This document shows, one piece after another, positions 3 to 29,164 of a stretch of 31,005 nt of DNA. This stretch comes from a virus, in the IMG/VR virus record IMGVR_UViG_3300049491_000041, positions 1-31,005 of that record, one strand, 5' to 3'. The stretch's first letter is position 1, and every line of letters starts with the position of its first letter. The position numbers were made by a program, and so were the translations under genes. The notes below the pieces were generated by a model, which saw nothing but the letters and a program-made list of their open reading frames with translations, had not been told where the DNA came from and searched no databases.

Positions 3-362
3 CAAAAAGCTGCAACGCAGTCTCGCATGTTTCTGCTGCACGAGCGCGTGGCAGACATGTTCCTCAAGATCATTGAGAAGCACAACAAGATGATGGACGT
101 AATGGATGGCATGGTCGAGGGCAACCTTGACAAAGACACCGTTACGGACGAGGTGCTGAACTCATTCATCGAACAAGGCGCTATGCCATCCCCGGCTATG
201 ATGTCCGCTATCACGAAGTTCCTCAAGGACAACGAGATCATGTTCGAGCGTGAGAAGATCGAAGAAGTGTCCGCACAACAGCGCGCACTGGAAGAACGCA
301 AACGGCAGCGTCCCAATCTGGACAACCTGCTTGCATTTCCCGCTGTAGGTAACGGCGGATGA
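3..362 (+). CDS. Terminase small subunit (DNA maturase A, T7 gp18-like), 5' end outside window
   Basis: Probable small terminase, which in T7-like phages recognises concatemeric DNA and hands it to the large subunit for packaging. The frame is open from the window edge; an ATG at 27 exists but has no Shine-Dalgarno sequence, so the true start probably lies upstream. The product is highly charged and helical, with a Glu/Lys/Arg-rich C-terminal half (EERKRQRP). The identification rests mainly on position: its stop overlaps the large terminase start as ATGA (359-362). The family is poorly conserved in sequence, so the functional call is inferred from context and size. Confidence 0.7.
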   Translation, partial: QKAATQSRMFLLHERVADMFLKIIEKHNKMMDVMDGMVEGNLDKDTVTDEVLNSFIEQGAMPSPAMMSAITKFLKDNEIMFEREKIEEVSAQQRALEERKRQRPNLDNLLAFPAVGNGG

Positions 363-2128
363 ACCAAGAAGAAAGATGGGCGGCACTTCGATCCTTGCAA
401 GAGGAATACGAGGAGTTCCGCCCATTCCTGTATGACGTGATGACCTCGATCCTCGGGTTTGATTGCTCACCGCTTCAACTCGACATCGCGCTGTATCTTC
501 AATTCGGTCCAACCTACCGGATGATCCAAGCGCAACGTGGTCAGGCAAAGACCACCATCACTGGCATCTACGCTGTGTGGCGGTTGATCCACAACCCATC
601 AACTCGTGTGCTGATCGTATCGGCAGGCGGCGACATGGCATCGGAAATATCGAACTGGGTGATCCAAATCATCGACAACATGCCTGAACTGGAATGCCTA
701 CGGGCAGACCCGTCACATGGTGACAGATCGAGCATCGAAGCATATGACGTGCATTGGCAGTTGAAGGGGCCGGAGAAATCCCCGAGCATTGCCAGCGTGG
801 GTATCACATCGAACATGCAGGGCAAGCGCGCCGACATCTTGATTGCGGACGACATCGAGTCATCGAAGAACTCGCAAACCGAGACTATGAGAGCGCGACT
901 GAAACACCTTACACTGGACTTCTCGTCCATCTGCGCCACTGGTGACATCATCTACCTTGGCACTCCGCAGAGCATCGACAGCGTGTATAACTCCTTGGTA
1001 TCCAAGGGCTTCGATATTCGTATCTGGCCGGGGCGTTTCCCCACACTCAAGGAAGAACCCAACTATGGCGCGTTCCTCGCACCGTTCATTCGTGACGCAA
1101 TGAAAGCCAATCCGGCTTTGCGTAGCGGCGGCGGCATGCTTGGCGACAGGGGCCATCCGACTGACCCGATCCTGATGTCCGAGCAGACCCTTCGCAAGAA
1201 GGAAATGGCACAGGGCAAAGCCTACTTCCAACTGCAACACATGTTGGATACCAGATTGGCAGACGAGGACAGGTTCCCGCTCAAAGTGAGCCAAATCCTG
1301 TTCATGCACATACCGGAGAAATCCGCGCCAATCGAACTCAACTTCATTCAGTCTCCCGAATGCCGCATTTCCACACCCGCAGACTTCCCCATCGAAGCGC
1401 CGCTGTATCGTGTCCATAGTTTCGGGCAAGAGTTCGGTGCATTCCAAGGGTCGTATATGCATGTGGACCCTGCTGGTGGTGGGCAGAATGGTGACGAAAC
1501 TGCATGGGCCGTAACCCGCATGATGGCTGGCAAGGTGTATGTGGTGGGCTGCGGCAGCGTTCCCGGTGGTGTTTCCAAGGAAGCATTCTTGGCACTCACT
1601 GCTATAGCAAAGCGGCTCAAGCCAAACCGTATCGGCGTCGAAAAGAACTTCGGCAATGGTGCATTCGGCAGTATCTGGCAACCGTATCTACTCAAGGAGC
1701 ATCTTGCTACCATTGAGGACGTATGGGAAAGCGGCCAGAAAGAACTGCGTATCATCGACTTGATTGAACCCCTGATTGGTTCCAGCAGGTTGGTTATGGA
1801 CATATCCCTGATCGAAGAAGATCAACGGCTGTGCCTGCAATATCCCGTGCAAGACCGCAGCAGCTTCTCCCTGTTCTACCAGATGTCGCGCATCACGCGT
1901 GACAAAGGCGCACTCCGCCACGATGACCGACTTGATGCCCTTGCGGGTGCATGCCGTCCGTGGGTCGAGGCACTGAAACAGGACGAGGACAAAGTGGCAT
2001 TGCAAGCGAAACGCAATAAATACCACGCGATGATGAAGAACCCGCTTGGCGACGGACGACCGTGGCCCGGCTATGTCCAATCCCTTGGAGGCAAGAGTAT
2101 ACTCTCCAGAATGCACAGGAAGTTCTAA
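359..2128 (+). CDS. terL: Terminase large subunit (DNA maturase B, T7 gp19-like)
   Basis: The 589-residue packaging motor ATPase and nuclease that cuts concatemers and pumps DNA into the prohead. Walker A is AQRGQAKTT at residues 58-66. Walker B is DILIADDIE at about 159-167, followed by the GTPQ coupling segment near 201. The C-terminal RNase H-like nuclease begins with MHVDPAGGG (Asp370) and ends with HDDRLDA (Asp522, Asp523, Asp526), the expected acidic set. Length is close to T7 gp19. The start overlaps the small terminase (ATGA) and the stop overlaps the next gene (TAATG), so the three are probably translationally coupled. Confidence 0.97.
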   Translation: MNQEERWAALRSLQEEYEEFRPFLYDVMTSILGFDCSPLQLDIALYLQFGPTYRMIQAQRGQAKTTITGIYAVWRLIHNPSTRVLIVSAGGDMASEISNWVIQIIDNMPELECLRADPSHGDRSSIEAYDVHWQLKGPEKSPSIASVGITSNMQGKRADILIADDIESSKNSQTETMRARLKHLTLDFSSICATGDIIYLGTPQSIDSVYNSLVSKGFDIRIWPGRFPTLKEEPNYGAFLAPFIRDAMKANPALRSGGGMLGDRGHPTDPILMSEQTLRKKEMAQGKAYFQLQHMLDTRLADEDRFPLKVSQILFMHIPEKSAPIELNFIQSPECRISTPADFPIEAPLYRVHSFGQEFGAFQGSYMHVDPAGGGQNGDETAWAVTRMMAGKVYVVGCGSVPGGVSKEAFLALTAIAKRLKPNRIGVEKNFGNGAFGSIWQPYLLKEHLATIEDVWESGQKELRIIDLIEPLIGSSRLVMDISLIEEDQRLCLQYPVQDRSSFSLFYQMSRITRDKGALRHDDRLDALAGACRPWVEALKQDEDKVALQAKRNKYHAMMKNPLGDGRPWPGYVQSLGGKSILSRMHRKF

Positions 2129-2502
2129 TGACTGACCAGCAAAACCCCGTCGAAGCCCCGGCTGAAAAAGCCACCACCCTGACCGCCCCCGTATGGCCGC
2201 GTGACATTTATGGCATTTCGTCCGGCCTTCGCCGTGAAATCGCCCGCACTGCTGGCCGCCTGAATGGCGACCCCAACAAGATGGCCGTGTTTATGGCCAC
2301 CCTTCGCGCTGGCGCTGAATGGGGTCATTCCCGCATGGAAGTGCAAGCCAAACTGAAATCCGCAAACATGGAGCGCCAATATGACCGACAAGATCGTGCC
2401 CTCGCGGACAACGCAAGCACTGACTTCAAAAATGGCGATGCTGAAACTGCTGCTGAACGGGCCGCTCGGCAAGATCATGCAGGCGTTGGCAATCGGAAGT
2501 AA
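2128..2502 (+). CDS. Unknown protein, overlaps endolysin
   Basis: A 124-residue protein I do not recognise. The start is the ATG of the TAATG junction with the large terminase stop. It begins with a Pro/Ala/Thr-rich stretch to about residue 25, then becomes charged and helical, with Arg- and Ala-rich segments (RREIARTAGRLNGD, ETAAERAARQ). There is no signal peptide or membrane segment, so it is not an obvious spanin, although the terminase-lysis junction is a usual spanin location. Its last 122 bases overlap the endolysin in another frame. It could be a minor structural or lysis-accessory protein; nothing seen decides this. Confidence 0.7.
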   Translation: MTDQQNPVEAPAEKATTLTAPVWPRDIYGISSGLRREIARTAGRLNGDPNKMAVFMATLRAGAEWGHSRMEVQAKLKSANMERQYDRQDRALADNASTDFKNGDAETAAERAARQDHAGVGNRK

Positions 2503-3112
2503 CATGCAGTTCGACTTCCCCGAGTTCAAGCACCTGATGCGAGAGCCGTTCAAGGCAGGCGCACTGGATGGGATACAGAAGATCGTGGATTACGGCAATC
2601 GCCAAGGCGTGACACGCGAACAGCTTGCTTACGTCCTTGCAACTGTCTGGCACGAAACAGCCGGGTGGATGCAGCCCATTCGTGAGGGCGCAGTCAGGTA
2701 TGGCCCGTCCTATACCGATGCGGCAGCACAACGCGCAGTTGCTGCGATCTATGCCAAGGGGATTATCACTTGGAACTACGCCAAGGTTTCCCCCAAGACT
2801 GGCAAGTCGTATTATGGTCGTGGCTTGTGCCAGATCACGCATGAGGAAAACTACGCGAAGTTCTCGCCCATCGTTGGTGTGGACCTTGTGAAAGACCCCG
2901 ATAAGGCGCTTGAGTGGCCCATCGCGTTGTGCATCCTGTTCACCGGGATGAAGCGCGGCATGTTCCGCAAAGACGAGAGCCTTGCTACCATCGACGGCGT
3001 GAATACCAAAGATGACTGGTATGAGGCGCGTGACATTATCAACGGCGATAAACGCAAGAATGGCGTTGCAATCGCAAACATCGCGGCAGTGTTCTATGCC
3101 GCACTGAGGTAA
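2381..3112 (+). CDS. Endolysin, glycoside hydrolase family 19 (chitinase/lysozyme-like)
   Basis: A 243-residue peptidoglycan hydrolase that would cleave the host wall glycan at lysis. GH19 features are visible: VWHETAGWMQPIREG with the presumed catalytic Glu92, and YYGRGLCQITHEENY at 144-158, the substrate-cleft signature of this family. The ATG at 2381 has GGAG at 2370-2373, seven bases upstream, which supports this start although it lies 122 bases inside the upstream gene; in-frame Met18 and Met20 are alternatives. Residues 20-38 are hydrophobic and could be a weak signal-anchor, but this is uncertain. The holin-like gene lies downstream at 3888. Confidence 0.92.
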   Translation: MTDKIVPSRTTQALTSKMAMLKLLLNGPLGKIMQALAIGSNMQFDFPEFKHLMREPFKAGALDGIQKIVDYGNRQGVTREQLAYVLATVWHETAGWMQPIREGAVRYGPSYTDAAAQRAVAAIYAKGIITWNYAKVSPKTGKSYYGRGLCQITHEENYAKFSPIVGVDLVKDPDKALEWPIALCILFTGMKRGMFRKDESLATIDGVNTKDDWYEARDIINGDKRKNGVAIANIAAVFYAALR

Positions 3113-3618: not shown

Positions 3619-3875
3619 TGGCCGCACTGACTGCTAAGACTGCTCTCACCGAGGATTATCAGCTTGTTGCTGATGCCGTGGTGAGGGCGGTCGCAAGGGC
3701 TTCCAAGACTGCCACGATTTGCATCGTTCCTGATGGTGCAACTGCACCCGCAAACAGTGCTCCGGGTATCGTGCTGGCATGTCCTGAGCCGTTTGACTTC
3801 GGCCCTCTCGGGTCTGCATGCGATGTGTATGCAAAGGGTGATGGAAACATCGTCCTGTTCACCAATACCGTGTAA
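3618..3875 (+). CDS. Small unknown protein
   Basis: An 85-residue product, Ala/Thr/Val-rich and predicted mostly beta after a helical start (DYQLVADAVVRAVARAS). It contains two cysteines (ICIVPDG and LACPEPF) and no membrane segment. It begins at the TAATG overlap with the preceding beta-rich protein, so the two are probably made together and may act on the same particle. It is followed 12 bases later by the holin-like gene, which has its own ribosome binding site. I do not recognise a family. Confidence 0.68.
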   Translation: MAALTAKTALTEDYQLVADAVVRAVARASKTATICIVPDGATAPANSAPGIVLACPEPFDFGPLGSACDVYAKGDGNIVLFTNTV

Positions 3876-3887
3876 CAAGGAGTTCAC

Positions 3888-4154
3888 ATGAACGTTTTCA
3901 CTGCTCTGATCCTGCGCTTCATAGCGTTTGCACTGGTCACTTATGCCGGTGTGTCTCTGGAATGGGCTGTTATGCTCACTTCCGACCCCGAATTGGTGGG
4001 TCTGCTGAATGCCACCATTGGTGCTGGCGTTGTGGTAGTCACCGAGGAACTCTCCAAGCGGGTGGGTCCGGGGCTATCCAAGTTGCTGCTGTCTTTGGCA
4101 ACGAAATATGCTGCCAAACAGTCGGAAAAGCTGATCCTGCACAAGCCGGATTGA
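3888..4154 (+). CDS. Holin-like small membrane protein
   Basis: An 88-residue protein with two hydrophobic segments, about residues 5-27 (LILRFIAFALVTYAGVSLEW) and 36-53 (VGLLNATIGAGVVVV), and a basic C-terminal tail (KYAAKQSEKLILHKP). This is the plan of a class II holin, which would permeabilise the inner membrane and release or activate the endolysin at 2381. A good ribosome binding site (AAGGAG) precedes the ATG. It is the last convincing gene before the long non-coding region, so it probably ends the late transcription unit. Holins share little sequence, so the call rests on topology and neighbourhood. Confidence 0.75.
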   Translation: MNVFTALILRFIAFALVTYAGVSLEWAVMLTSDPELVGLLNATIGAGVVVVTEELSKRVGPGLSKLLLSLATKYAAKQSEKLILHKPD

Positions 4155-4164
4155 CCCCGATTTC

Positions 4165-4194
4165 CGGCCCGTGGAGCGCGTTCTCTGCGGGCCG
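4165..4194 (+). terminator. Hairpin after the holin-like gene, possible late terminator
   Basis: A perfect 7-bp stem (CGGCCCG 4165-4171 with CGGGCCG 4188-4194) and a 16-base loop, starting 11 bases after the holin stop. No T-run follows, so it is not a classical intrinsic terminator; it could be an RNA processing site or 3' end stabiliser. Confidence 0.4.
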
Positions 4195-4315
4195 TCACTA
4201 CCATCGCGCTCAGACCGTGTTACCTATCAGGCGGCTGGCTCCGTGGCGGGATCGGTGCATTCCGCAGGGTTTCCGGCTTGCATTCGCCCGGTGCAATCTC
4301 GGAGCGTTGCGGGAG

Positions 4316-4390
4316 AACTCGCCATATGAACTCCGCGTATAAACTCCATGCTACAACTCAGGTCAACTCTCAGTATGAACTCAGGGTCGG
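4316..4390. repeat. Six-copy AACTC short-repeat array with 13-bp period
   Basis: AACTC occurs at 4316, 4329, 4342, 4355, 4365 and 4378, giving spacings of 13, 13, 13, 10 and 13 bases. Bases between copies are partly similar (ATATG, GTATA and GTATG recur; two units continue as AGGTC and AGGGTC). T7 carries arrays of a short repeat next to its terminal repeats, with a spacing of roughly one helical turn, so this may mark or organise the right genome end. That role is an inference. Confidence 0.75.
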
Positions 4391-4395
4391 CAAGG

Positions 4396-4410
4396 ATTTT
4401 TGATAAAAAT
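4396..4410. repeat. AT-only inverted repeat
   Basis: ATTTTT and AAAAAT flank a three-base centre, just after the AACTC array. It is a small, easily melted palindrome in otherwise GC-balanced DNA. Function is unknown; it could help mark an end or an entry site. Confidence 0.4.
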
Positions 4411-4466
4411 TTGTATGGGGGTATCAATCAAACAGTCGCGCGTGAGTTTCCCCCATGCGGGCACCC

Positions 4467-4616
4467 GCGCTACACACACGCCTACACGCGCAATCGCACA
4501 CGCATACACGGGCGCACATACGCATACACGCACATCACGCACATGCACATACGCGCCTACACAGGCGCTCACACGCATAGGCGCATGCACTCGCACATAC
4601 ATACGCGCGCGATTGT
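4467..4616. repeat. CA/CG alternating pyrimidine-purine tract 1
   Basis: About 150 bases built from overlapping ACACGC, CACATA, ATACGC and GCGC units in near-continuous pyrimidine-purine alternation, ending in ACGCGCGCG. It does not code: frames through it are repetitive and have no start signals. Such alternation is prone to left-handed (Z) DNA under supercoiling. A related tract follows at 4825-4957. Confidence 0.8.
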
Positions 4617-4695
4617 CTGCCCTATCAATCACCTTTGCAAGCCAGTATCAACCGGATCATGCACTATCATTTAGCATGTGATAAATCTGCCACAC

Positions 4696-4718
4696 TCGTG
4701 TTCCCAGTATAGGAAGGG
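4696..4718 (+). promoter_or_regulatory. Candidate phage RNA polymerase promoter, copy A
   Basis: A 23-base element containing TTCCCAGTATAGGAAGGG, matching 24536-24558 at 21 of 23 positions. The 3' half resembles the T7 promoter core (CACTATAGGGAGA): TATA followed directly by G, predicting +1 at 4712. It faces the early and replication genes. A 27-base block at 4750-4776 is also conserved with copy B. These are the only two matches I find, one at the left end and one after the RNA polymerase gene, as expected for a phage-specific promoter. Confidence 0.7.
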
Positions 4719-4749
4719 ATAACCGAATATCCAATGATTTCAATGGGTT

Positions 4750-4776
4750 ATGCATGAGGCCAGATCAGTTAACATG
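4750..4776 (+). repeat. Conserved 27-base block downstream of promoter-like element, copy A
   Basis: Contains ATGCATGAGGCCAGATC and GTTAACATG and is identical to 24585-24611 except for one A/G. It starts 38 bases after the predicted +1. It could be a conserved 5' transcript element, an RNase III site or part of the promoter itself. Confidence 0.75.
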
Positions 4777-4824
4777 CTAAGTCTTTGATATTGTTAGATA
4801 AATCCTTGTCTTGATCCAAAGGAT

Positions 4825-4957
4825 AAACACACACGCACATCATGCGCCTAGCACATACACGCGCAAGCCCGCGTAACACACATACGCGCATGTGAGTATA
4901 ACTACACACACGCATGATGTGATCCATAACCGCGCATGCATACACACGCACACGCGA
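4825..4957. repeat. CA/CG alternating pyrimidine-purine tract 2
   Basis: A second tract of ACACAC, CGCACA, TACGCG and GCATGCA units in near-alternating pyrimidine-purine order, about 130 bases. It lies on the other side of promoter-like copy A from tract 1, so the element is bracketed by two Z-prone tracts. No coding potential is seen. Confidence 0.75.
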
Positions 4958-5093
4958 CCCTAGCTAAACCATTGATAACACACACAAATAACTTTCTTTG
5001 TGAGTTACTCTAACCCATTGATTTCATTACATTCTTTCTTTCAAGTATCTCACAAGGCATTGATATTCCTTGCATATTTTCCATGCATAGCAG

Positions 5094-5122
5094 TTGACAA
5101 TCAAAACGACGTAGGGCATACA
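5094..5122 (+). promoter_or_regulatory. Candidate host sigma70-type early promoter
   Basis: A perfect TTGACA at 5094-5099 is followed 17 bases later by CATACA (5117-5122), a weak -10 with 3 of 6 consensus bases. It lies after an AT-rich stretch and before the first early gene, where T7-like phages place host promoters. The weak -10 lowers confidence. Confidence 0.4.
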
Positions 5123-5218
5123 GATCACACAACGAAACAAGACGTGACAGCGGGTTAAGACCTAGTAACGTTTGGTTTCCATGCTCTTAGGGTCTGGTGG
5201 TAATTGCCCGCCTATCCT

Positions 5219-5237
5219 GAACCTTTGACAGAGGTTC
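5219..5237 (+). promoter_or_regulatory. Leader hairpin upstream of the early genes
   Basis: GAACCT (5219-5224) and AGGTTC (5232-5237) form a perfect 6-bp stem with a 7-base loop. It would lie in the 5' leader of an early transcript started near 5130. The role is unknown; RNA processing is possible. Confidence 0.4.
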
Positions 5238-5461
5238 GCCTTATAGTGCCTGACTGGTGTATGACCATGTAATCCGTGGATGCTGCCAGCACGCCGAAAC
5301 CGCATAAACACTTGCTGTGTGTATGTCCTAGCACGGTTGCGACCTACAGCCTAACGGTCTGGTCAATGCTGATGGACAGATAGCGCAAGCTAGTAATGCG
5401 GTTGATCATGCTGCCCTTGTTCACACGAGGTTAGCACAGTCAACCGATATAAGGTGATACC

Positions 5462-5638
5462 ATGACTAAGGGCCAACGCAAGGCAATGCGCCGTGCTACG
5501 TCCAGTGACATCGCAAAACGCTTCCCGAAAGGTGGCAATGATCCTCTTGGGTCAACGGTGACACTTGGCAACAGTTTCCGGTCTGTGGATAGCCTTGATT
5601 TCAAGGTTATCAAAACAGGGACTATGAAGCGCAAATGA
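5462..5638 (+). CDS. Small basic early protein
   Basis: A 58-residue basic protein, the first gene after the left-end control region. It begins MTKGQRKAMRRATSSDIAKR and ends KTGTMKRK, so both ends are positively charged. AAGGTGAT at 5451-5458 precedes the ATG and its stop overlaps the next start as ATGA, so it is well supported as a gene. Small basic first-expressed proteins of phages often act on host nucleic acids or transcription; here that is only a suggestion from position and charge. No family recognised. Confidence 0.7.
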   Translation: MTKGQRKAMRRATSSDIAKRFPKGGNDPLGSTVTLGNSFRSVDSLDFKVIKTGTMKRK

Positions 5639-5832
5639 AAGACGTGACACCTAAGACCGCTGAACAGCGGCAAGCGATTGCTTATCTGTGGATAAGCGTT
5701 GCTATCAATGCAGTGTTCTATGCGCTGCTTTTCATCTTCGCTAAGTCATGGGTGGTGACAGTGTTTCTCTGCCACCTGATCCTTGGCGCAGTGCTGATTG
5801 CTGGCAGCATCTTTCTGGCAACCCGCAAGTAA
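5635..5832 (+). CDS. Small two-span membrane protein
   Basis: A 65-residue early protein with a polar N-terminus (MKDVTPKTAEQRQ) and two transmembrane segments, about 16-36 and 40-62, joined by a short turn containing KSW, and a short basic end (ATRK). It overlaps the preceding small basic gene by ATGA, so the two form one translational unit. An early membrane protein could affect superinfection or the host envelope, but no family is recognised and it is too far from the lysis genes to be called a holin. Confidence 0.72.
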   Translation: MKDVTPKTAEQRQAIAYLWISVAINAVFYALLFIFAKSWVVTVFLCHLILGAVLIAGSIFLATRK

Positions 5833-5855
5833 GCCCTACAGTCTCCACTGACTAT

Positions 5856-5893
5856 TGCTGATGTGCAAGAGGCCACACGCTTCTACATCAGCA
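5856..5893 (+). promoter_or_regulatory. Leader hairpin before the 5931 gene
   Basis: TGCTGATGT (5856-5864) and ACATCAGCA (5885-5893) form a perfect 9-bp stem; AAG and CTT inside can extend it past a small internal loop. A second hairpin, GTCAC 5897-5901 with GTGAC 5913-5917, lies just before the ribosome binding site. Probably an RNA processing or stability element. Confidence 0.55.
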
Positions 5894-5930
5894 GCAGTCA
5901 CGCTGCATCACAGTGACATGGAGACACAAG

Positions 5931-6482
5931 ATGACGAAACTGACCTACTCGTATGCTATGAACGCTGCTGCGATGGACGCTGGCATCACTGCCATCGGCA
6001 AGCGCAGTGCCACGCTCATGCAGGACGTGCAGAAGATCGCTGTTTCGATCCTGCGGGATATGAAGCAGCACGGTGACAAGCCCACGGCTGTCAAGCGGGC
6101 CAATGGCCTGTGCGCTGCCTTGGGTGCAGGGATGCGGGCCAATGCTTTGCGGCTGTGGTTCGAGACGCTGGCACCGATGGTGTGGAACGACAAGGAAAAG
6201 ACGCTGACCTATGGTCACAGCGCCACCTCTCCGGTGCGCGACACCAAGGACATCGACGTGGACAAGTGCATCGCTTCGCCGTGGCAGTTGGCCGATGGCG
6301 GCGAAAAGCCCTACAAGCCGATTGACAACTGGTCCGCACAACTCGCTTCGATCATCAAGCGGGCGCATGAGGACATCAAGGCGATGGGCGACAAGTCCAA
6401 GGTGAACAAGGCGCAACTGCTGGTGCTGGAAGGCATGGCAGAAGGCAAGCCGCTGGCAACGCTGGTCGGCGCGGCCAACTAA
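5931..6482 (+). CDS. Unknown helical early protein
   Basis: A 183-residue protein. The start is the ATG at 5931 with GGAGA six bases upstream; an in-frame GTG at 5913 would add six residues but lacks a better signal. Residues 1-75 are helical (AMDAGITAIGKRSATLMQDVQKIAVSIL cannot be assigned to a family), followed by LWFETLAPMVWNDKEKTL, a polar middle and a helical C-terminus. It resembles in outline a group of uncharacterised podovirus proteins of similar size that start with a helical repeat, but I cannot name the family with confidence. It stands alone between two structured gaps. Confidence 0.8.
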   Translation: MTKLTYSYAMNAAAMDAGITAIGKRSATLMQDVQKIAVSILRDMKQHGDKPTAVKRANGLCAALGAGMRANALRLWFETLAPMVWNDKEKTLTYGHSATSPVRDTKDIDVDKCIASPWQLADGGEKPYKPIDNWSAQLASIIKRAHEDIKAMGDKSKVNKAQLLVLEGMAEGKPLATLVGAAN

Positions 6483-8118: not shown

Positions 8119-8493
8119 ATGATCGCTATCTCGGAAATGCTCAAGACGGCCGTGTGGCTGAACTGGGACGACGCCTTTCGTGTCTGCATGATGATCAAGT
8201 CGAGGACCAGCCTGCGTGTGCTGGTCACACCACACTATGACGGCCTTGAGCAAGACGGTTACTGCATTGTCACCATCCACCATAACGGTGTGGATATGTC
8301 GGTGCGGAACACCATCAAGATGGGCCTGATTGCGGCGCTGTGCGCTCGGCATGACCTGCCCGCCGACGATGTGAAGGCCAAGAAGTTCTATGGCCCGCGC
8401 TTCAACGACTACCCCTACTTCGCTGAGGGCATGCCCAAGGCCAATGTCAGGGCCGAGATTGCGGGGCCTGTCACCAGTGGCGGACCCCGCTGA
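8119..8493 (+). CDS. Unknown early protein
   Basis: A 124-residue protein from the ATG at 8119, which lies eight bases after AGAAGGA (8104-8110); the in-frame ATG at 8113 is only two bases from that site and is less likely. The sequence is mixed alpha/beta, with hydrophobic strands (LRVLVTPHY, GYCIVTIHHNGVDM) followed by a helix (IKMGLIAALCARHDL). No catalytic motif recognised. It opens a second run of early genes to 10132 and is preceded by two strong RNA structures. Confidence 0.75.
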   Translation: MIAISEMLKTAVWLNWDDAFRVCMMIKSRTSLRVLVTPHYDGLEQDGYCIVTIHHNGVDMSVRNTIKMGLIAALCARHDLPADDVKAKKFYGPRFNDYPYFAEGMPKANVRAEIAGPVTSGGPR

Positions 8494-11843: not shown

Positions 11844-13113
11844 CGTGACCATACTGCGAATGCTCAAGAACAAGGCAGACTTTCGCCGTGTATTTGGACG
11901 CATTCCAGAGGCCGCGCTGAACGCAGAGACGAGGGCCATCCTCGACGACTATAGGAAATACTTCGACAAGTTTCCTGAACATGATGTCGTTGACATGGCC
12001 ACGTTTATTCCGATGTTCAGGGTGTGGCACAATACCCTAACGCCCGAGAAGCGCACGATGTATGAAATGGTTCTGGCTGGTGTTGCCAAAGACGTGGCAC
12101 CTGCTGACCGTGACGTTATCATGCGTCAAATCCTCGAACTGCGGCTTGCCACTGAACTGGGGCATGCACTTACGCAGTTTGACGCGGGCGATCTACCCAA
12201 TATCAACGCGGTGTTGGACGACCTGCAACGGCAGTTCAAAGCCGATGCACAGATCAATGACAAGCTGTTTATTGACACAGACATCCACGACATCTTGGAC
12301 GAGGAAACGGATGACAAAGGTTTACGTTGGCGGCTGGACTGCCTAAACAATTCCATGCGTCCTCTACGACCCGGCGACTTTGGCATCATTGCAGGCAGAC
12401 CTGACAAAGGCAAGACTTCGTTTATCGCAAGCGAGGTTAGCTTTCTTGCACAGCAACTGCCCGAAGGAAGAAACGTTCTCTGGCTCAATAACGAGGGACC
12501 GGGGAAGCGTATCATACCTCGCTTTTGGCAAGCTACCCTAGGAGCGACCATGACGGAAATGCTTGTGTTGCGTAAGGCAGGCAAGCTGAAAGAACCGTTC
12601 ATCAAGTTGCAGGGCCGCATCGACAAGCTGCGGGTAAAGGACATTCACGGGATGGACAACTATTCCGTGGAACAGATCATCGAGCAGAACAAGGCTGATG
12701 TGGTCATCTATGACATGATCGACAACATTCACGGGTTCGGCAACGAGAGCCGGACGGACCAGCGCCTCGAAGAAATGTATAAATGGGGACGCGAACTAGC
12801 TGTGAGTATGGGCCACGTTGGCATTGCGACATCGCAGATCAGCGCGGATGGGGCGAACATGCAGTTCCCGCAAATGCACATGCTCAAGGACAGCAAGACA
12901 GGCAAACAAGGTGCCTGTGACTTCCAGATCATGATTGGCTCAAAGGATGACCCCGGTTGGGCAGCAGTCCGTTGGGTTACAATCCCGAAGAACAAACTTA
13001 GGCGCGATGGACACCCATCTGACCCTCGCGCTGCTGTCAACTTTGACCCGGCAAGGGTCAGGTTCACCGACATCGACCAATCAGCCGTTGATGGAGACGC
13101 AGATGCAGAATGA
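11833..13113 (+). CDS. Replicative DNA helicase (RecA-fold, T7 gp4B/DnaB-like)
   Basis: A 426-residue ring helicase that would unwind DNA ahead of the 17341 polymerase. Walker A is GRPDKGKTS at 188-196, Glu221 follows in WLNNEGPGKR, and Walker B is VVIYDMID at 290-297. An ASP-box-like segment GIATSQISADG follows in the expected place. The N-terminal 150 residues form a helical domain that could contact the separate primase. The C-terminus is acidic (DQSAVDGDADAE), as in T7 gp4, where the acidic tail contacts DNA polymerase. The gene overlaps primase upstream and the metallophosphoesterase downstream. Confidence 0.92.
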   Translation: MTVDVTILRMLKNKADFRRVFGRIPEAALNAETRAILDDYRKYFDKFPEHDVVDMATFIPMFRVWHNTLTPEKRTMYEMVLAGVAKDVAPADRDVIMRQILELRLATELGHALTQFDAGDLPNINAVLDDLQRQFKADAQINDKLFIDTDIHDILDEETDDKGLRWRLDCLNNSMRPLRPGDFGIIAGRPDKGKTSFIASEVSFLAQQLPEGRNVLWLNNEGPGKRIIPRFWQATLGATMTEMLVLRKAGKLKEPFIKLQGRIDKLRVKDIHGMDNYSVEQIIEQNKADVVIYDMIDNIHGFGNESRTDQRLEEMYKWGRELAVSMGHVGIATSQISADGANMQFPQMHMLKDSKTGKQGACDFQIMIGSKDDPGWAAVRWVTIPKNKLRRDGHPSDPRAAVNFDPARVRFTDIDQSAVDGDADAE

Positions 13114-14554
13114 AGAACATAATCACGAGATTGGCGGTGAACTTTCATCGCCAGTCGCACGGCGCGTGAGGACCGAGGCAACAACCTTGGTGTTCACAGT
13201 AGCGCAGAACAACACCAAGCTGCACGAGAGGTTCTGGCAGTCGCTGATGCGGTTCGTTGAATACAAACAGGCGGAACTGCACATCGCGCGGATCACCTAT
13301 GTCAAGGCGATGCAGGGTTCTGCAAAGCCGGGCACGAAGAAGTGGACCGACGATGACCGCATGTGGTATGACCCACGGATCACCCCGTATATCTCGGATC
13401 AAGCGGTGCAGGTTGCGCCCGATCTGGTATGGTGCGGAGAACTGAACATTATCCCGACGCGGGTTGACCCACTGTCAAACCTGCTGTCATACACCCGCAA
13501 CGCATCCGGTATCGTTCCGCATGTGAAGATGGGGATGAAGTCCGTGCCAACGATGAAGGGGCATGATCGTAAGTTCATGTATACCACCGGAACCGTGACG
13601 CAACGGAACTACATTCAGAAGGCAGCAGGGCAGATCGCAGAGTTCCACCATGTGTTCGGTGCTGTGATCGTCGAGGTTGATGCTGATGGCCGCTGGTGGG
13701 CACGACAGATCAATGCAGATACCTATGGCGTGTTCTATGACAAGACCACTCGGTATTCACCAGAGGGAGTATCACATGGCTGGCCCGTTGAAGCGATGGT
13801 GCATGGCGACATTCACATCGGCAAGGCGAACAATGCTTTGCTTGACACTGTGTTCATGGCTGGCGGTGTCGTGGATCAACTACGACCGAAGCATCAGTTC
13901 TTTCACGATCTGGTTGACTTCACGCCGCGAAATCACCACAACATAGACGACCCGCATTACCTCTGGTCAAAAGAGGCGCAGAAGTCTGTGGAGAGCGAGT
14001 TCGATGCAGCGGCTATGCTGTTACATCATGCAGAGCGTTCGTGGTCCACGTCGCACGTCGTGGTCAGCAACCACGACACTGCAATCAGCAGGTGGCTGCG
14101 GAACACCGTTGCATTCTGGGACGCAAAGAACGTCAAGTATTGGCTCGAAATGAACCAGTATGTGATCGGCAAACTCCACCACGGAGAAAAGCCGCACCCG
14201 TTCCTGTATGCGTTGCAAAGGGCACGACCCGGCCAGTTCCACCTGATTGACGAGGACGAGAGTTTCCGCATTCACGATGTGGAGTTTGGCCTGCATGGGC
14301 ACCTCGGTCCGAATGGCAGCAGGGGATCACCGAAGAACCTGAGCGCAATCGGTAAGGCTTGCACGGCGCACACGCACAGTGCTGGCATAATCGAAGGCGT
14401 ATACACAACCGGGGTTTATGGCAACCTTGACATGGGCTACAACAAAGGCCCCTCGTCGTGGTCGCATGCATTCGTTGTGCAGTATGCCAACGGAAAGCGG
14501 GCCATCTACACTTTCAACGGCCTGATGCCGTGGAGGAACTACGAGAATGTCTGA
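13103..14554 (+). CDS. Calcineurin-like metallophosphoesterase
   Basis: A 483-residue protein with the metal-binding motifs of the metallophosphoesterase superfamily: GDIHIG (Asp236, His238), SNHD (Asn323, His324, Asp325), LHGHLG (His398, His400) and AHTH (His423, His425). This dinuclear metal fold cleaves phosphodiesters or phosphomonoesters; a DNA or nucleotide substrate is likely given the replication setting, but is not shown. The ATG at 13103 has GGAG seven bases upstream; an ATG at 13091 is an alternative. It overlaps the helicase end by 11 bases and the next gene by 8. Residues 1-130 show no recognised domain. Confidence 0.85.
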   Translation: MQNEEHNHEIGGELSSPVARRVRTEATTLVFTVAQNNTKLHERFWQSLMRFVEYKQAELHIARITYVKAMQGSAKPGTKKWTDDDRMWYDPRITPYISDQAVQVAPDLVWCGELNIIPTRVDPLSNLLSYTRNASGIVPHVKMGMKSVPTMKGHDRKFMYTTGTVTQRNYIQKAAGQIAEFHHVFGAVIVEVDADGRWWARQINADTYGVFYDKTTRYSPEGVSHGWPVEAMVHGDIHIGKANNALLDTVFMAGGVVDQLRPKHQFFHDLVDFTPRNHHNIDDPHYLWSKEAQKSVESEFDAAAMLLHHAERSWSTSHVVVSNHDTAISRWLRNTVAFWDAKNVKYWLEMNQYVIGKLHHGEKPHPFLYALQRARPGQFHLIDEDESFRIHDVEFGLHGHLGPNGSRGSPKNLSAIGKACTAHTHSAGIIEGVYTTGVYGNLDMGYNKGPSSWSHAFVVQYANGKRAIYTFNGLMPWRNYENV

Positions 14555-21667: not shown

Positions 21668-22041
21668 AGACTTCTCAGATTGCACAGGCAAGAGCCTTAC
21701 TGCAAAAGGCGCAAGACAACAAGTGCGCCCTGTGCAAGAGAGAGTTTGGGCCGAAGGTCGTGGGATGCTTAGATCATAACCATGCGACGGGGTTTATTCG
21801 AGGCGTGTTGTGTCTGGCATGCAACCGCTTTGAAGGTCAGGTCAACAACCGTGTGATGATGGCAGGGCAACGACAGACACCCGTTGAGTTCCTGCATGCA
21901 CTGGCTGCATACTGGGAGAAGCATGAGACACCGCAAACGCGGTTCCTGCACCCAACCCACAAGACCAATGAAGAAAAGGTTGCAGCAATCAAGGCTGCTG
22001 CAAAGCGCAGATACGCCGCTAAAAAGAAAGGTGCTAAATGA
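21646..22041 (+). CDS. Recombination endonuclease VII
   Basis: A 131-residue Holliday junction / branched DNA resolvase of the T4 gp49 type, needed to clear branched DNA before packaging. The zinc-binding Cys27/Cys30 and Cys56/Cys59 pairs frame the His-Asn-His nuclease site DHNHATG (43-49), with Asn60 after the last Cys (LCLACN). The C-terminus is Lys/Ala-rich (AAAKRRYAAKKKGAK), suited to DNA binding. No ATG fits; a TTG at 21646 overlaps the exonuclease end. It ends in an ATGA overlap with RNA polymerase. Confidence 0.93.
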   Translation: MVEAVRLKTSQIAQARALLQKAQDNKCALCKREFGPKVVGCLDHNHATGFIRGVLCLACNRFEGQVNNRVMMAGQRQTPVEFLHALAAYWEKHETPQTRFLHPTHKTNEEKVAAIKAAAKRRYAAKKKGAK

Positions 22042-24521
22042 CAGATACTCTCCGTGACCCAAGCGATGTGATGCGTCAAATCGAATGGGAAGATCACATG
22101 CTGCGCAGAGGCGTTGATCGCTTCATGTCGGCACAAACCCAAGCACGAGAAGAAGGACGTGGTGACGAGGCACATGCCGAACGCCGCATGCTATCGCATT
22201 ACTTGCTTGCGGTTGCGGAGGGCATCGAAGCATTCACCGAAGTCACGCAATACTCGCATGACAATTCCGAGAAGCAAATGCTGCGCGCTTTGCCATCGAA
22301 GATGACGGCCATGCTTACCCTCAAAGGCATCCTGTCAGAACTACACAATCCTCGCATACCGCTTGCCGCATTGGCACAGAGTATTGGTGCGCGAGTTGAG
22401 GACGAAATTATGATGCAGAAGTTCCACGCAGAGCATGGGACATACTTCGAGGAGATTGTTCGCAAGATCGACAGCAAGCATTCGTTCTCGCGGGAGTATA
22501 AGCGCAAGAGCATCGAAGGCTCACTGCGTAATCAGAAGGGGGAACAGATAGATCGCTGGACAACAGCGCAGCGTTACAAGCTAGGCCAGCGGTTGATCCA
22601 CATTGCATCGCAGGTGTGCGACCTGTTCGAGATTAATGCGATTGCATCGCAGCGCAGTGGCGGCACGTTCATTCGCGCAACCGACAAGTGCCTGATGTGG
22701 ATGCGGGATTTCGAGGCAGAAATGAGCATCATGTTCCCCGATAGGATGCCCATGCTGATCCCACCTGATCCGTGGACCAATGCACAGGAGGGCGGCTACA
22801 TCACACCGCATCTGCGTAAGATGACGCCGCTGATCATCAAGTCGCCAATGGCAACGGCCAACAACACAGGCTGGATGGACCTGTATAACAACGCAAACAT
22901 GCCCAAGGTGTATCGAGGCATCAACGCTTTGCAGGACACCAAGTGGGGCATCAACGATGCGGTGCTGCGTGTGCTGCGACAAGTGATGGAGAAGAACCTC
23001 GGCACGGGTGTCCCGCGTAGTGACCCGTATGAGTTCCCTGTATGTCCGCTTGGCGATGGTGTCAAGCCTGCGTCACTCGACCCAACCAGCGCGGAAATGG
23101 AAGCGTTCAATATGTGGAAGGGTGAAATGCGAACCATGCATGAACTCGAAGCAGAGCGCCGCGCTAAGATCGTCAACGTAAGCCGGATCATTCGCATGGC
23201 GGGTGAAATGGAGAACACGGAGTTTCACTATGTTTACCGCTGCGATTTCCGTGGCCGAGTGTATTGCGCCACAAGTGGACTATCACCGCAAGGAACAGAA
23301 CTTGCAAAAGCACTTCTTCGCTTTGCTGAGGGAAAACCACTTGGAGAGAGGGGATGGTATTGGTTCCGTGTTGCCGGTGCTAATAGATATGGCAAGGACA
23401 AGGTTAGCTTTGATGATCGGGTCAAATGGATTGATGAGTGCGGTGACACTTGGAAGCAGTGTGCAGTGGACCCAATCGGAACTCGCGAGATTTGGGGTAA
23501 AGCTGACGACCCCTACAGTTTTCTCGCATGGTGTTATGAGTATTGGGGTGCAAGCCAATGTCGAAATCCAGCTACCTTTATCTCTCACCTTCCGATCGGT
23601 ATGGATGGATCGTGTAATGGATTGCAACACTTCTCTGCAATGCTACGAGATGGAGTTGGAGGGTCGGCAGTCAATCTTGTTCCGGCACAGAAACCTTCTG
23701 ACATTTACCAACGAGTTGCCGATGTCATGTCTGACCGACTCAGAGCCATGCCCGACAATCCGTATGCAGTCAGATGGCTTGCCCTGTTCCACCAGCTTGG
23801 GCTGGGAGGCGCGCCAAGGGCGCTGACAAAGAAACCAGTGATGACCCTACCGTATGGGTCAACGGAGCGAACAGCATGCGACAGCGTGATGCAGTGGTAT
23901 CTGGAGAATGGGCAGGGGTTCTTCCCCAAAGCAGAAGCGTTCAAACACGCACTGTTTCTTACGCCTATCTTATGGACGAGCATTGGCGATGTAGTTATTG
24001 CAGCAAGGGCAGCTATGGCTTGGATACGCAAGTGTGCAGGTATTGTAGCCCGCTCAGGCCAGCCACTTGAATACACCAGCCTGCTTGGTTTCCCAGTGCG
24101 GCAGATCAACGAGAAGATGAAGTCGGAGATTATCACCACATACCTTAGTGGCAGGCTACGCATCGCCATTGATGTGCCGACTGGTGAGATTGACAGCCTC
24201 AAGATGCAGAATGGTTCGTCGCCTAACTACGTCCACCACGGCGATGCAACGCACATGATCATGTCAATCAACGGCATGCTGGACGAGGACATCACTTCAT
24301 TCGCAATGATCCACGACGACTACGGCACACACGCATGCTACATCGAGGCTATGCATCGGGTCATCCGGCGCGAGTTCTTGGTGTTGTATATGAACCGCAA
24401 TGCACTGCTTGAGTTCAAGCGGCAGCTAGAGTTGAACAGCGGTTGCGAGTTGCCAGACCCACCTGAATACGGAACGCTTGATCTGTCAGGTGTTACGGAC
24501 AGTGCATATTTCTTTTCTTGA
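22038..24521 (+). CDS. Phage single-subunit DNA-directed RNA polymerase (T7 gp1-like)
   Basis: An 827-residue T7-type RNA polymerase that would transcribe phage genes from its own promoter. Motifs: YRCDFRGRVY (template-binding), MDGSCNGLQHFSAMLRD (catalytic Asp523), TKKPVMTLPYGST (Arg594, Lys598, Met602, Tyr606) and IHDDYGT (catalytic Asp760; T7 has HDSFGT). The C-terminus is SAYFFS where T7 ends FAFA. It is shorter than T7 RNAP. Its place after the replication genes and before the virion genes is the phiKMV order. Candidate target promoters are at 4696 and 24536. Confidence 0.97.
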   Translation: MTDTLRDPSDVMRQIEWEDHMLRRGVDRFMSAQTQAREEGRGDEAHAERRMLSHYLLAVAEGIEAFTEVTQYSHDNSEKQMLRALPSKMTAMLTLKGILSELHNPRIPLAALAQSIGARVEDEIMMQKFHAEHGTYFEEIVRKIDSKHSFSREYKRKSIEGSLRNQKGEQIDRWTTAQRYKLGQRLIHIASQVCDLFEINAIASQRSGGTFIRATDKCLMWMRDFEAEMSIMFPDRMPMLIPPDPWTNAQEGGYITPHLRKMTPLIIKSPMATANNTGWMDLYNNANMPKVYRGINALQDTKWGINDAVLRVLRQVMEKNLGTGVPRSDPYEFPVCPLGDGVKPASLDPTSAEMEAFNMWKGEMRTMHELEAERRAKIVNVSRIIRMAGEMENTEFHYVYRCDFRGRVYCATSGLSPQGTELAKALLRFAEGKPLGERGWYWFRVAGANRYGKDKVSFDDRVKWIDECGDTWKQCAVDPIGTREIWGKADDPYSFLAWCYEYWGASQCRNPATFISHLPIGMDGSCNGLQHFSAMLRDGVGGSAVNLVPAQKPSDIYQRVADVMSDRLRAMPDNPYAVRWLALFHQLGLGGAPRALTKKPVMTLPYGSTERTACDSVMQWYLENGQGFFPKAEAFKHALFLTPILWTSIGDVVIAARAAMAWIRKCAGIVARSGQPLEYTSLLGFPVRQINEKMKSEIITTYLSGRLRIAIDVPTGEIDSLKMQNGSSPNYVHHGDATHMIMSINGMLDEDITSFAMIHDDYGTHACYIEAMHRVIRREFLVLYMNRNALLEFKRQLELNSGCELPDPPEYGTLDLSGVTDSAYFFS

Positions 24522-25464: not shown

Positions 25465-25764
25465 ATGCCACAGGCACTTCCACTGATCTTTGCAGGCATC
25501 GGAGCAGCCAGTGCTGTTGCTGGTGTTGTCTCGGCCAACAAGGCTAGGCAAGAAACTGCGGCACGAGCAGCCGAGCAGGAACTCGCGGCAAAGAATGCAG
25601 GCGCACTGGATAGCACGGCGCAGAACGCCGATGCGAACTTTGTGCTTGGCACGAAAGACCCGAAGAAAAAGGCAGCACAAGTCGGCACGGCAACGACTGG
25701 CAAAGCTGTCACGTCAACTCAGAAGGCTGGCGGCATCAGTGCATCTAGCGTAGGCGGGCTGTAA
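25465..25764 (+). CDS. Small virion-like protein, possible T7 gp7.3/gp6.7-type
   Basis: A 99-residue Ala/Gly/Lys-rich protein placed directly before the portal gene, where T7 has its small virion proteins gp6.7 and gp7.3. The N-terminus has a hydrophobic stretch (LIFAGIGAASAVAGVVSA at 7-24), followed by an Ala-rich helix (QETAARAAEQELAAKNAG) and a basic, Gly/Ser-rich end (QKAGGISASSVGGL) reminiscent of T7 gp7.3. AAGGAT precedes the ATG and the stop shares TAATG with the portal start. Role in the particle is inferred. Confidence 0.7.
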   Translation: MPQALPLIFAGIGAASAVAGVVSANKARQETAARAAEQELAAKNAGALDSTAQNADANFVLGTKDPKKKAAQVGTATTGKAVTSTQKAGGISASSVGGL

Positions 25765-27341
25765 TGTCGGAGTTCATCGCACCGCAGCCGGGCCAGTATG
25801 AGGACAACAAGAATATCCGGTCAGTATGGGATGCGATGGATATGAGCAAGGGCGACCTTATTGATCGCTCCAAAGAATATGCTCGTCTCACCGTGCCCTC
25901 GATCTGCCCGCAAGATAACGCAGGCAACACGGAACAAGAACATGCCAACGTGATGATTGGTCCCCGCGTGGTTAACTTCCTCGCGCACAAACTGATCAAC
26001 ACAATGTTTCCGCATGATCGCCCGTTCTTCAAGATCACGATCAAGCCGCAAATCGAGTTCGATCTTTCCAAGCAGGTTGACCAAGCCACAATCGACAAGT
26101 CCAAAACGGACATCGAAGAACGTGGCATTCAGGTTGGCAAGCTGGCTATGTCGAAGTTGGACATGATCCAATACCGCCCCGTTGCTATCGAAGCTGCCAA
26201 GCACTTGATCGTGACAGGGAACGCTGTGATCCGGCGACTGCCCAATGGCAAGCGAGTTGTGTATGGCGTAAAGTCATTCGGCATCTGGCGCAACATTGAC
26301 GGCTCACCGTATGACATGATCGTTAAGGACTTGTCGCGCTTTGACGCATTGGACTTGGACGTGCAAGACAGAGTTAAGGCACAACGAGTTGGTGTGCAGC
26401 CGTATGACATCGTGGCGTTGTATTCACGTTGGCGTTGGGATGCACGAGCAGGCAAGTGGGAGTTCACCCAAGCTGTTGATGATGTCAACATTGGCACTTT
26501 CTCACTGGTTGCAGAGCGAGACTTCCCGCTAATCCCGCTGACATGGACACTTGCAAGAGGCGAGAACTATGGCCGTGGGCTTGTCGAGGACAACATCGCA
26601 GCGTTCAGTTCTATTGACGTTTCCACCACCGCATTGCTGGACCTGATGGGCATAGCTGCTGACATCAAGTTCTTTGTCAATCCGGGGTCTGTCGTTGATA
26701 TTCAAGAACTGGTCAACTCAAAGCGAGGCACCTACCATCTTGGCGCAGAAGGCGATGTGACATCACCCAATGTTAGCCAGCAGAAGATGGCCGACATGCG
26801 AGTGATGGCAGAGAGCATTGCAAACTGGGAGCGTAATCTCAGTGCAGCATTCCTAATGTCATCCGGCAGTGTCCGTGATGCAGAGCGTGTGACCGCAGAA
26901 GAAATCCGGTTCTATGCCAAGGAAATCGAGAGCGCGTATGGCGGACTGTATTCCATGCTGTCAAAAGTATGGCAACTGTTCGAGGCCACATGGGCTATCG
27001 GAAAGATTGAGCAAGGACTGCCGAAGTTTGTTGATGTCTTGATCACCACCGGATTGGATGCACTTTCGCAAGAGAGCGCGCTGGACAATCTCGGTAGGTC
27101 GTTCCAGATGCTCTCCATTCTTAACGGAACACCCCCAGAGGTTTTGGGCACGTTGGACCTGTCCGCGATTGCTCGGTTCATCTTTATGAACAACAACCTC
27201 CCATTCAACCAGTTCACCCTGAGTGCAGACCAACTCGCAGAGCGGCAAGCGCAACAACAAGCGCAAATGCAGCAGCAAGTTGACATGCAGAAGCATGCCG
27301 ACGTATCGAAGGCAGTCGCGCAGGGTGCGGCGAAACAATAA
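25764..27341 (+). CDS. Portal protein (head-tail connector, T7 gp8-like)
   Basis: A 525-residue portal that would form the twelve-fold ring at the packaging vertex, binding the terminase during packaging and the tail afterwards. Segments typical of T7-type portals are present: TVPSICPQ near 50, GPRVVNFLAHKLINTMFP at 72-89, TWTLARGENYGRGLVED near 270 and the long Gln-rich C-terminal helix (ERQAQQQAQMQQQVDMQK). Length is close to T7 gp8. It begins at a TAATG junction and is followed by the scaffold after nine bases. Confidence 0.96.
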   Translation: MSEFIAPQPGQYEDNKNIRSVWDAMDMSKGDLIDRSKEYARLTVPSICPQDNAGNTEQEHANVMIGPRVVNFLAHKLINTMFPHDRPFFKITIKPQIEFDLSKQVDQATIDKSKTDIEERGIQVGKLAMSKLDMIQYRPVAIEAAKHLIVTGNAVIRRLPNGKRVVYGVKSFGIWRNIDGSPYDMIVKDLSRFDALDLDVQDRVKAQRVGVQPYDIVALYSRWRWDARAGKWEFTQAVDDVNIGTFSLVAERDFPLIPLTWTLARGENYGRGLVEDNIAAFSSIDVSTTALLDLMGIAADIKFFVNPGSVVDIQELVNSKRGTYHLGAEGDVTSPNVSQQKMADMRVMAESIANWERNLSAAFLMSSGSVRDAERVTAEEIRFYAKEIESAYGGLYSMLSKVWQLFEATWAIGKIEQGLPKFVDVLITTGLDALSQESALDNLGRSFQMLSILNGTPPEVLGTLDLSAIARFIFMNNNLPFNQFTLSADQLAERQAQQQAQMQQQVDMQKHADVSKAVAQGAAKQ

Positions 27342-28216: not shown

Positions 28217-29164
28217 ATGGCTTACCCGGAAACTGACGGCACGAACCTGAGTGATCTGGCCCGCGACGAAATGATCGAGCATTACGCTGGTGAAGTCGAT
28301 GGCCAATTCGCCAAGGCTTCCATCATGCGTCAATTCGTGCAGGTGAAACCCGTTCGCGGCACCGACACGCTGATCAACCGTCGCGTTGGTCGCACCCAAC
28401 TGCAAGCACTGGTTGATGGTGTTCCGCCCTCCCCGACCAAGACCAAGTTCGGTCGCGTCTCGGTGACGGTTGATACCACCATCATCGCCCGTGACATTCG
28501 TTCGCAACTGAACGAGTTCCAAACCGACTTCAATGCCCGTGCTGAACTGGGTATGGATCACGGCAAGGAACTGGGCAAGTTCTTCGATGAAGCACTGCTG
28601 ATCCAAGCTGCCAAGGGTGCCGCGCAATCCGCACCCGCCGACCTCAATTCGGCCATCGGCGCTGGTCAGGTGGAAACCCTTGCCACTGCTGGCGATGAAC
28701 TGGACCCCGATCTGCTGTATGCATCGGTTGCTACGATCATCACCGAAATGCAGGAAGCGGAAGTTGACACCGACAGTTCGGCTGTGTTCGTTCGCCCCAC
28801 GCAGTATGACGTGCTGCTGAACTGCGACAAGCTGATCGACAAGGACTTCTCGCGTGACAATGGCGACTTCGCCAATGGCACCGTCAAGACGATCAAGGGT
28901 GTTCCGATTGTGATGACGACCCGCATCCCGGTTGCTGCGATTGCCTCGCACAAACTGGGCTCGGACTACAACTGGACTTCGACCGAAGCCAAGACCGTGG
29001 CGATCATCACCCACCCGCAATCGCTGCTGGTCGGTGAGACGATCCCGCTGACCTCGCGTGTGTTCTTCGACAACATCTCGTTGAACTGGTTCATCGACAG
29101 CTATATGGCTTTCGGTGCATCGCCGCGCCGTCCCGATGTGTCGGGCGTGGTCCGCTCGGCCTAA
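28217..29164 (+). CDS. Major capsid protein (T7 gp10-like)
   Basis: A 315-residue HK97-fold capsid protein. Seen: DEMIEHYAGEVDGQFAKAS near the N-terminus, VKPVRGTDTLINRRVGRT, and FVRPTQYDVLLNCDKLIDKD in the central domain; these are typical of T7-type capsid proteins. AAAGGA precedes the ATG. The stop is followed by a strong intrinsic terminator, as after T7 gene 10. No frameshift-extended form is obvious. Codon use is more biased to C-ending codons than in its neighbours, consistent with high expression. Confidence 0.97.
   Translation: MAYPETDGTNLSDLARDEMIEHYAGEVDGQFAKASIMRQFVQVKPVRGTDTLINRRVGRTQLQALVDGVPPSPTKTKFGRVSVTVDTTIIARDIRSQLNEFQTDFNARAELGMDHGKELGKFFDEALLIQAAKGAAQSAPADLNSAIGAGQVETLATAGDELDPDLLYASVATIITEMQEAEVDTDSSAVFVRPTQYDVLLNCDKLIDKDFSRDNGDFANGTVKTIKGVPIVMTTRIPVAAIASHKLGSDYNWTSTEAKTVAIITHPQSLLVGETIPLTSRVFFDNISLNWFIDSYMAFGASPRRPDVSGVVRSA

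What the first reader, a model, noticed from the sequence alone, without database searches (positions are those of the whole stretch)
4316..4390. AACTC array with 13-bp spacing at the probable right genome end
Six AACTC copies are spaced 13, 13, 13, 10 and 13 bases apart in non-coding DNA just past the last late gene. T7 has short-repeat arrays flanking its terminal repeats. A differently sequenced array at the matching location suggests a conserved layout with a diverged motif, possibly read by terminase or replication proteins.
Basis: partly seen in the sequence, partly recalled or inferred. Interest (0 to 1): 0.72.

Follow-up and report, generated by a model that had tools for sequence, protein, structure and literature searches.

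The report
Repeat array beside phage DNA end
In this T7-like phage, six copies of a five-letter DNA word, mostly 13 letters apart, sit about 40 letters before the point where the packaging enzyme is predicted to cut the genome; phage T7 has the same layout with a different word, so the array is probably an optional helper of the genome-cutting site.

Summary
The array is real: AACTC at 4316, 4329, 4342, 4355, 4365 and 4378 (spacing 13,13,13,10,13), in non-coding DNA, not explained by chance. The window is a 31-kb fragment of a T7-family phage (Autographiviridae) and crosses the junction between its right and left genome ends. By alignment with Paso and Palo (ends predicted from reads by PhageTerm), T3 and T7, the terminus is predicted at 4423/4424 (GGGGGTA|TCAATC), 41 bp after the array. 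The nearest relatives (L001, L005) have 13-bp-period AACT(C/T)GG arrays at the same place, although the neighbouring protein is only 34-35% identical. T7's own left array (CCTAAAG) also runs at 13 bp. Paracoccus, Agrobacterium, Rhizobium and marine phages have arrays at 10-14 bp with other motifs. Across 36 termini besides the window and L005, 10-14-bp spacing is enriched (Fisher 5e-15); 5-9 or 14-20 bp is not. The array is not universal: 15 of 36 are individually significant, 3 of 14 in a set chosen blind to arrays; L119/L120, phiKMV and SP6 lack it while keeping the core end signal. Best reading: a diverged counterpart of T7's SRR repeats, an optional part of the maturation/packaging site. 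Which protein reads it is untested.

The parts
4316..4382 (+). Array of six AACTC copies (4316, 4329, 4342, 4355, 4365, 4378), spacing 13,13,13,10,13; counterpart of the T7 right-end short-repeat array (SRR)
   Evidence: same-place arrays in L001 and L005
4390..4419 (+). AT-rich element of the end core (GCAAGGATTTTTGATAAAAATTTGTATGGG), counterpart of GAAAATGACAAATTTTTACG in L001, L005 and Paso and of T7's CCATAAAAATCTGAGTGA
4423..4424 (.). Predicted physical terminus, GGGGGTA|TCAATC (DTR starts at 4424)
   Evidence: Alignment with Paso and Palo record ends (PhageTerm-predicted repeats), T7 ..GACTA|TCTCACAG and T3 ..GGGTA|TCTCATAG
4444..4456 (+). Conserved post-cut block GAGTTTCCCCCAT, about 21 nt after the cut as in T7, Paso and Palo
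4424..4621 (.). Predicted direct terminal repeat, about 198 bp; right boundary tentative
   Evidence: Palo, T3 and T7 DTRs are followed directly by ATCTGTT; the window counterpart CTATCAATCA begins at 4622. Inference
4454..4586 (+). CACGCG/CGCGCA-type low-complexity repeats at 10-14 bp spacing inside the predicted DTR
   Evidence: L001 has a 12-bp array at the same place
3888..4154 (+). Last likely late ORF (88 aa, hydrophobic), syntenic with the ORF before the array in L001 and L005 (34-35% identity)
3..362 (+). Terminase small subunit, cut by the window start (Pfam DNA_Packaging_2, PF11123)
359..2128 (+). Terminase large subunit, T7 type (PF22530; PHROG terminase large subunit)

Best explanation
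The array is this phage's counterpart of T7's right-end short-repeat array (SRR): an optional, fast-diverging part of the genome-maturation and packaging site. Established here by sequence: a non-coding direct-repeat array with about 13-bp period lies directly before the predicted terminus, then an AT-rich element, the cut GGGTA|TC and, about 21 nt on, the TTTCCCCCAT block, in the order seen in T7. Inferred: in the concatemer a multimer of the maturation machinery (TerS and/or TerL, possibly helped by phage RNA polymerase stalled at the concatemer junction) binds successive copies every ~1.2 helical turns and so positions cleavage at 4423/4424. I put about 0.9 on its being the end-flanking array and about 0.5 on its being contacted by the terminase complex.
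For: Terminus: Paso's record has a PhageTerm repeat at 1-371 and Palo's at 1-260 (PMC7844081); their junctions read GCGGGTA|TCTAATAC and GGGCATA|TCTAATAC after an AT-rich AAATTTT element and CTCAG copies. T7 and T3 junctions match this, and T3's first bases were read-mapped (PMC3896407). ATCTGTT directly follows the DTR in T7, T3 and Palo; it is the class II pause/termination sequence found at the concatemer junction (PMC11617373). Array: L001 and L005 carry 13-bp arrays at the same place though the preceding protein is 34-35% identical. T7 SRL spacing is 13,13,12,13,13 and then 13 five times. Over 36 termini excluding the window and L005, 10-14-bp chains upstream of the cut are enriched (Fisher 4.7e-15, 15/36 at p<0.05), while 5-9, 14-18 and 16-20 bp are not. 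A blind set of 14 termini gives Fisher 7e-4. Constant core with variable spacers suggests selection on motif and phase. Packaging specificity between T3 and T7 maps within 5% of the termini and involves gp19 (PMC3276506).
Against: The array is not universal: L119/L120 (65% TerL identity) keep the core end and lack it; phiKMV and SP6 likewise; 11 of 14 blind termini are not significant. On a TerL tree its presence is scattered (6 changes for 12 rows, like shuffled labels). Motifs differ even between phages with related TerS (Paso CTCAG, X3_9 CCGTG), so simple TerS sequence reading is not evident. T3 and T7 gp18 are interchangeable (PMC3276506). The window's AACTC does not recur in its own left-end region, unlike CCTAAAG in T7. 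No binding or cleavage data exist for this phage.
Confidence: 0.6

Rival explanations
1. Tandem-slippage by-product: short repeats arise and decay in unconstrained DNA near phage ends and have no function.
For: Patchy presence with no clustering on the TerL tree; fast motif turnover; other low-complexity repeats nearby inside the DTR; L119/L120, phiKMV and SP6 lack it.
Against: The 5-bp core is invariant while spacers diverge; the same 13-bp period at the same place in window, L001, L005 and in T7; enrichment is confined to 10-14 bp spacing.
Confidence: 0.25
2. Replication or recombination element: the array binds a phage or host replication protein, or aids annealing of ends into concatemers or protects the ends.
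For: An AT-rich stretch lies next to it; arrays flank both sides of the end in several phages; T7's right-end region holds phiOR, which is also an origin (general knowledge).
Against: No initiator gene or known initiator box was identified; the array lies outside the predicted DTR, so it is not part of the annealed repeat; no measurement distinguishes this.
Confidence: 0.1
3. RNA-level or promoter element (terminator, pause hairpin or late promoter).
For: It lies just after the last late gene, where terminators occur; L119/L120 have an inverted repeat at that place.
Against: RNA folding is no better than shuffled sequence (z -0.55); no promoter or terminator match there; no Rfam match; direct, not inverted, repeats.
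Confidence: 0.05

Closest known systems
T7 short-repeat arrays SRR/SRL flanking the terminal repeat (names from general knowledge; CCTAAAG sequence measured here in NC_001604)
   Same: Non-coding direct-repeat array directly before the right DTR, about 13-bp period (T7 SRL 13,13,12,13,13 and 13x5), then an AT-rich element..TA|TC cut and a GTTCCCCCATAGG block.
   Different: Motif AACTC, not CCTAAAG; six copies only; the motif does not recur in the left-end region; T7's SRR spacing is less regular than the window's.
End regions of Rhizobium phages Paso and Palo (PhageTerm-predicted DTRs 371 and 260 bp)
   Same: CTCAG copies (Paso 13,12,13; Palo 21,11) just before AAATTTT..TA|TCTAA; the window's copies 4 and 6 read AACTCAGG.
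   Different: Fewer copies; neither array reaches p<0.05 on its own; no array is annotated in the records fetched.
Terminase recognition sites (lambda cosB, SPP1 pac)
   Same: Repeated binding motifs beside a terminase cut site (general knowledge).
   Different: Unrelated sequence and spacing; binding here untested.

Membership tests
T7-type SRR/SRL end-flanking arrays | Location directly next to the direct terminal repeat, in non-coding DNA after the last late gene | tested here: met
   Predicted cut 4423/4424 from Paso, Palo, T3 and T7 alignment; array ends at 4382. The end is predicted, not read-mapped, for this phage
T7-type SRR/SRL end-flanking arrays | Short direct repeats with about 12-13 bp period | tested here: met
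   Spacing 13,13,13,10,13; T7 SRL 13
T7-type SRR/SRL end-flanking arrays | CCTAAAG motif | tested here: not met
   Motif is AACTC
T7-type SRR/SRL end-flanking arrays | Same motif on both sides of the DTR | tested here: not met
   No AACTC cluster in the window's left-end region; other repeats lie inside the predicted DTR
Autographiviridae end signal (AT-rich element, cut, TTCCCCCATAGG-type block) | Order and offsets as in T7, Paso and Palo | tested here: met
   GGGGGTA|TCAATC at 4423/4424, GAGTTTCCCCCAT at 4444
Terminase recognition site (pac/cos-type) | Bound by TerS or TerL and needed for cutting at the end | not testable with these tools
   Needs binding and cutting assays
Iteron-type replication origin | Near-identical long iterons bound by an initiator encoded nearby | tested here: not met
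   Only a 5-bp core is shared between copies; none of the window proteins scanned was an iteron initiator, though not every ORF was scanned

The most novel reading that the evidence does not exclude
End-flanking arrays of T7-family phages form a fast-evolving self-recognition code: each lineage carries its own 5-6-bp word at a shared ~13-bp spacing, read by its own maturation/terminase complex, so that related phages in one cell cut and package their own concatemers.
Probability: 0.2. Interest if true: 0.75.

Novelty: new variant of a known kind. Interest (0 to 1): 0.5.

Why it matters
A review of the terminase small subunit states that how it reads DNA is unresolved (PMC9611059), and I know of no established function for T7's end-flanking repeats. 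A second, differently worded set of arrays with the same spacing, found in phages of alphaproteobacteria and others, and absent in some near relatives, gives natural variants for testing whether spacing, motif or neither matters. It also gives a sequence rule (AATTTT..GGGTA|TCTA..about 20 nt..TTTCCCCCAT) that predicts physical ends in autographivirus contigs without read data.

Tried and rejected
DNA search of 3800-6000 against the phage collection: no match. Protein search with the ORF beside the array: no match. A tight end pattern in viral contigs gave 0 hits; the looser one gave 9, including a T7-type phage. An AACTC x3 pattern at 13-bp spacing gave 82 contigs, too many to inform at 15 specified bases; I did not examine them for terminase genes. 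Coding origin of the array: the ORFs overlapping it (3962-4342, 4348-4674) are mechanical; the syntenic protein stops at 4154. RNA structure, promoters, tRNA, Rfam: nothing. Universality of the array: rejected. Co-evolution of motif with TerS: compared by eye on alignment A2 only, no clear link; not tested statistically. Structure prediction was not run: it would not show DNA reading. No paper found in the library describes these arrays outside T7, but subscription papers are missing and only a few hits were read.

Full report
What is there. The window carries a T7-family gene layout: terminase small subunit cut by the window start (PF11123), terminase large subunit 359-2128, an endolysin with a chitinase-type domain at 2381-3112, small ORFs, then about 1.7 kb without convincing genes, then early and replication genes, single-subunit RNA polymerase 22038-24521, connector 25764-27341, capsid 28217-29164. 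The record is a 31005-base virus fragment. Terminase relatives are Autographiviridae, at about 61% identity or less in named phages, the nearest mostly of alphaproteobacterial hosts, and 70-74% in L005 and L001.

AACTC lies at 4316, 4329, 4342, 4355, 4365 and 4378. No 5-mer in 100 locally shuffled windows reached six copies in 67 bp. The core is invariant and the spacers are not, which speaks against a fresh tandem duplication.

Where the genome ends. Paso's record bears a PhageTerm-predicted repeat at 1-371 and Palo's one at 1-260 (PMC7844081). Joining their record ends gives ..AAATTTTTACGTGCGGGTA|TCTAATACACC..CAGTTTCCCCCATAGGG for Paso and ..AAAATTTTGTGTGGGCATA|TCTAATACC..AGATTTCCCCCATAGG for Palo. 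T7 reads ..AAAAATCTGAGTGACTA|TCTCACAG..GTTCCCCCATAGGGG and T3 ..AAAAATCTGAATGGGTA|TCTCATAG; T3's first bases were mapped by sequencing (PMC3896407). The window reads ..AAAAATTTGTATGGGGGTA|TCAATC..GAGTTTCCCCCAT, so the terminus is predicted between 4423 and 4424, with the block after the cut at the same offset to within a base of Paso's. T7, T3 and Palo all have ATCTGTT directly after their DTR, the class II sequence of the concatemer junction (PMC11617373). The window has CTATCAATCACC at 4622 in a comparable place, also found in L001, so I predict a DTR of about 198 bp; that boundary is weaker.

The array in relatives. L001 and L005 have arrays of AACT(C/T)GG type at 13-bp period at the same place, though the protein just before is only 34-35% identical to the window's. 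Other arrays by eye or score: Paso CTCAG 13,12,13; MedPE-SWcel-C56 CTCAGG 13,10; ParKuw1 CGTCAG 13,12; ParMal1 CGACAG 13,12; Atu_ph02 and Alfirin CCCGT-type 13,13,12; X3_9 CCGTG-type; L003 CTCTGG 11,12,11; L134 CTGGG 10,12,12. T7's left array measured here is 13,13,12,13,13 and later 13 five times.

Statistics. I scored the best chain of near-identical 6-mers at a given spacing in the 95 bp from -125 to -30 of each terminus against dinucleotide shuffles. In the first set of 15 (without window and L005), 10-14-bp spacing gave Fisher 2.5e-14, 5-9 and 15-19 bp nothing, 20-24 bp 0.06 and 25-29 bp 0.003. The region and spacing class were chosen after I had seen some of these arrays, so I collected 14 further termini by the end signal alone: 3 of 14 at p<0.05, Fisher 7e-4. 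All 36 together (again without window and L005): Fisher 4.7e-15, 15/36, with no signal at 5-9, 14-18 or 16-20 bp and weak excess at 20-28 bp, about twice the period. Some termini are related, so these values are approximate. In a tile control over the same loci, most of the highest-scoring other tiles lie on the left-end side of the cut, recalling T7's SRL.

Limits. L119/L120 keep the end core but have no array; phiKMV and SP6 too. Presence is scattered over the TerL tree, needing 6 changes, no fewer than shuffled labels. So the core is the constant part and the array an accessory. I first thought the array might be general; the blind set corrected that.

Mechanism. Most likely the array is contacted by the maturation/terminase complex in the concatemer and helps place the right-end cut. 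This rests on position, period and analogy with T7; nothing here shows binding. In T3/T7, packaging specificity lies within 5% of the ends and involves gp19, the large subunit, while gp18 is interchangeable (PMC3276506), so the large subunit or the paused polymerase is as good a candidate as TerS. The chief rival is that such arrays are slippage products without function.

Known or new. The layout is that of T7's SRR/SRL; the motif, copy number and host group differ. I call it a new variant of a known kind.

Noticed in passing
L101 (Agrobacterium phage Alfirin, OR997969) 4297-4531 and 4672-4906: The end core is present twice: a 235-bp stretch (17 bp before to 218 bp after the predicted cut) is duplicated 375 bp apart; only the first copy has the repeat array upstream. 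A natural test of whether the array is needed.
   Followed up: partly
window 4454-4586; L001 about 8285-8400: Low-complexity CACGCG/CGCATACACG repeats inside the predicted DTR; in L001 the same place holds near-perfect 12-bp repeats (GTATGCCCGCCC grading into GGATACACGCCC).
   Followed up: partly
L095 (RHEph02), L102 (X3_9), L097 (Paso) about 410-570 bp after the cut; L093 (Atu_ph02) likewise: Left-end arrays of TAGATA (12-13 bp) or GATGGA (11 bp), resembling T7's SRL but with a motif shared between genera.
   Followed up: no
L102 (X3_9) on both sides of the cut at 12964: CCGTG-type copies occur before the cut and, as AGCCGT at 13,12,13,13,13, after it: the same word on both sides, as in T7.
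   Followed up: partly
window about 4640-5890; L001 9150-9500 against L005 3770-4110: More than 1 kb of left-end DNA without convincing genes or Rfam matches; parts are well conserved between L001 and L005 and might encode an RNA.
   Followed up: no
window 12935-14554: Protein matching PHROG 'DNA transfer protein'; the Palo paper reports a homolog of the T5 A1 DNA-transfer protein in that phage.
   Followed up: no
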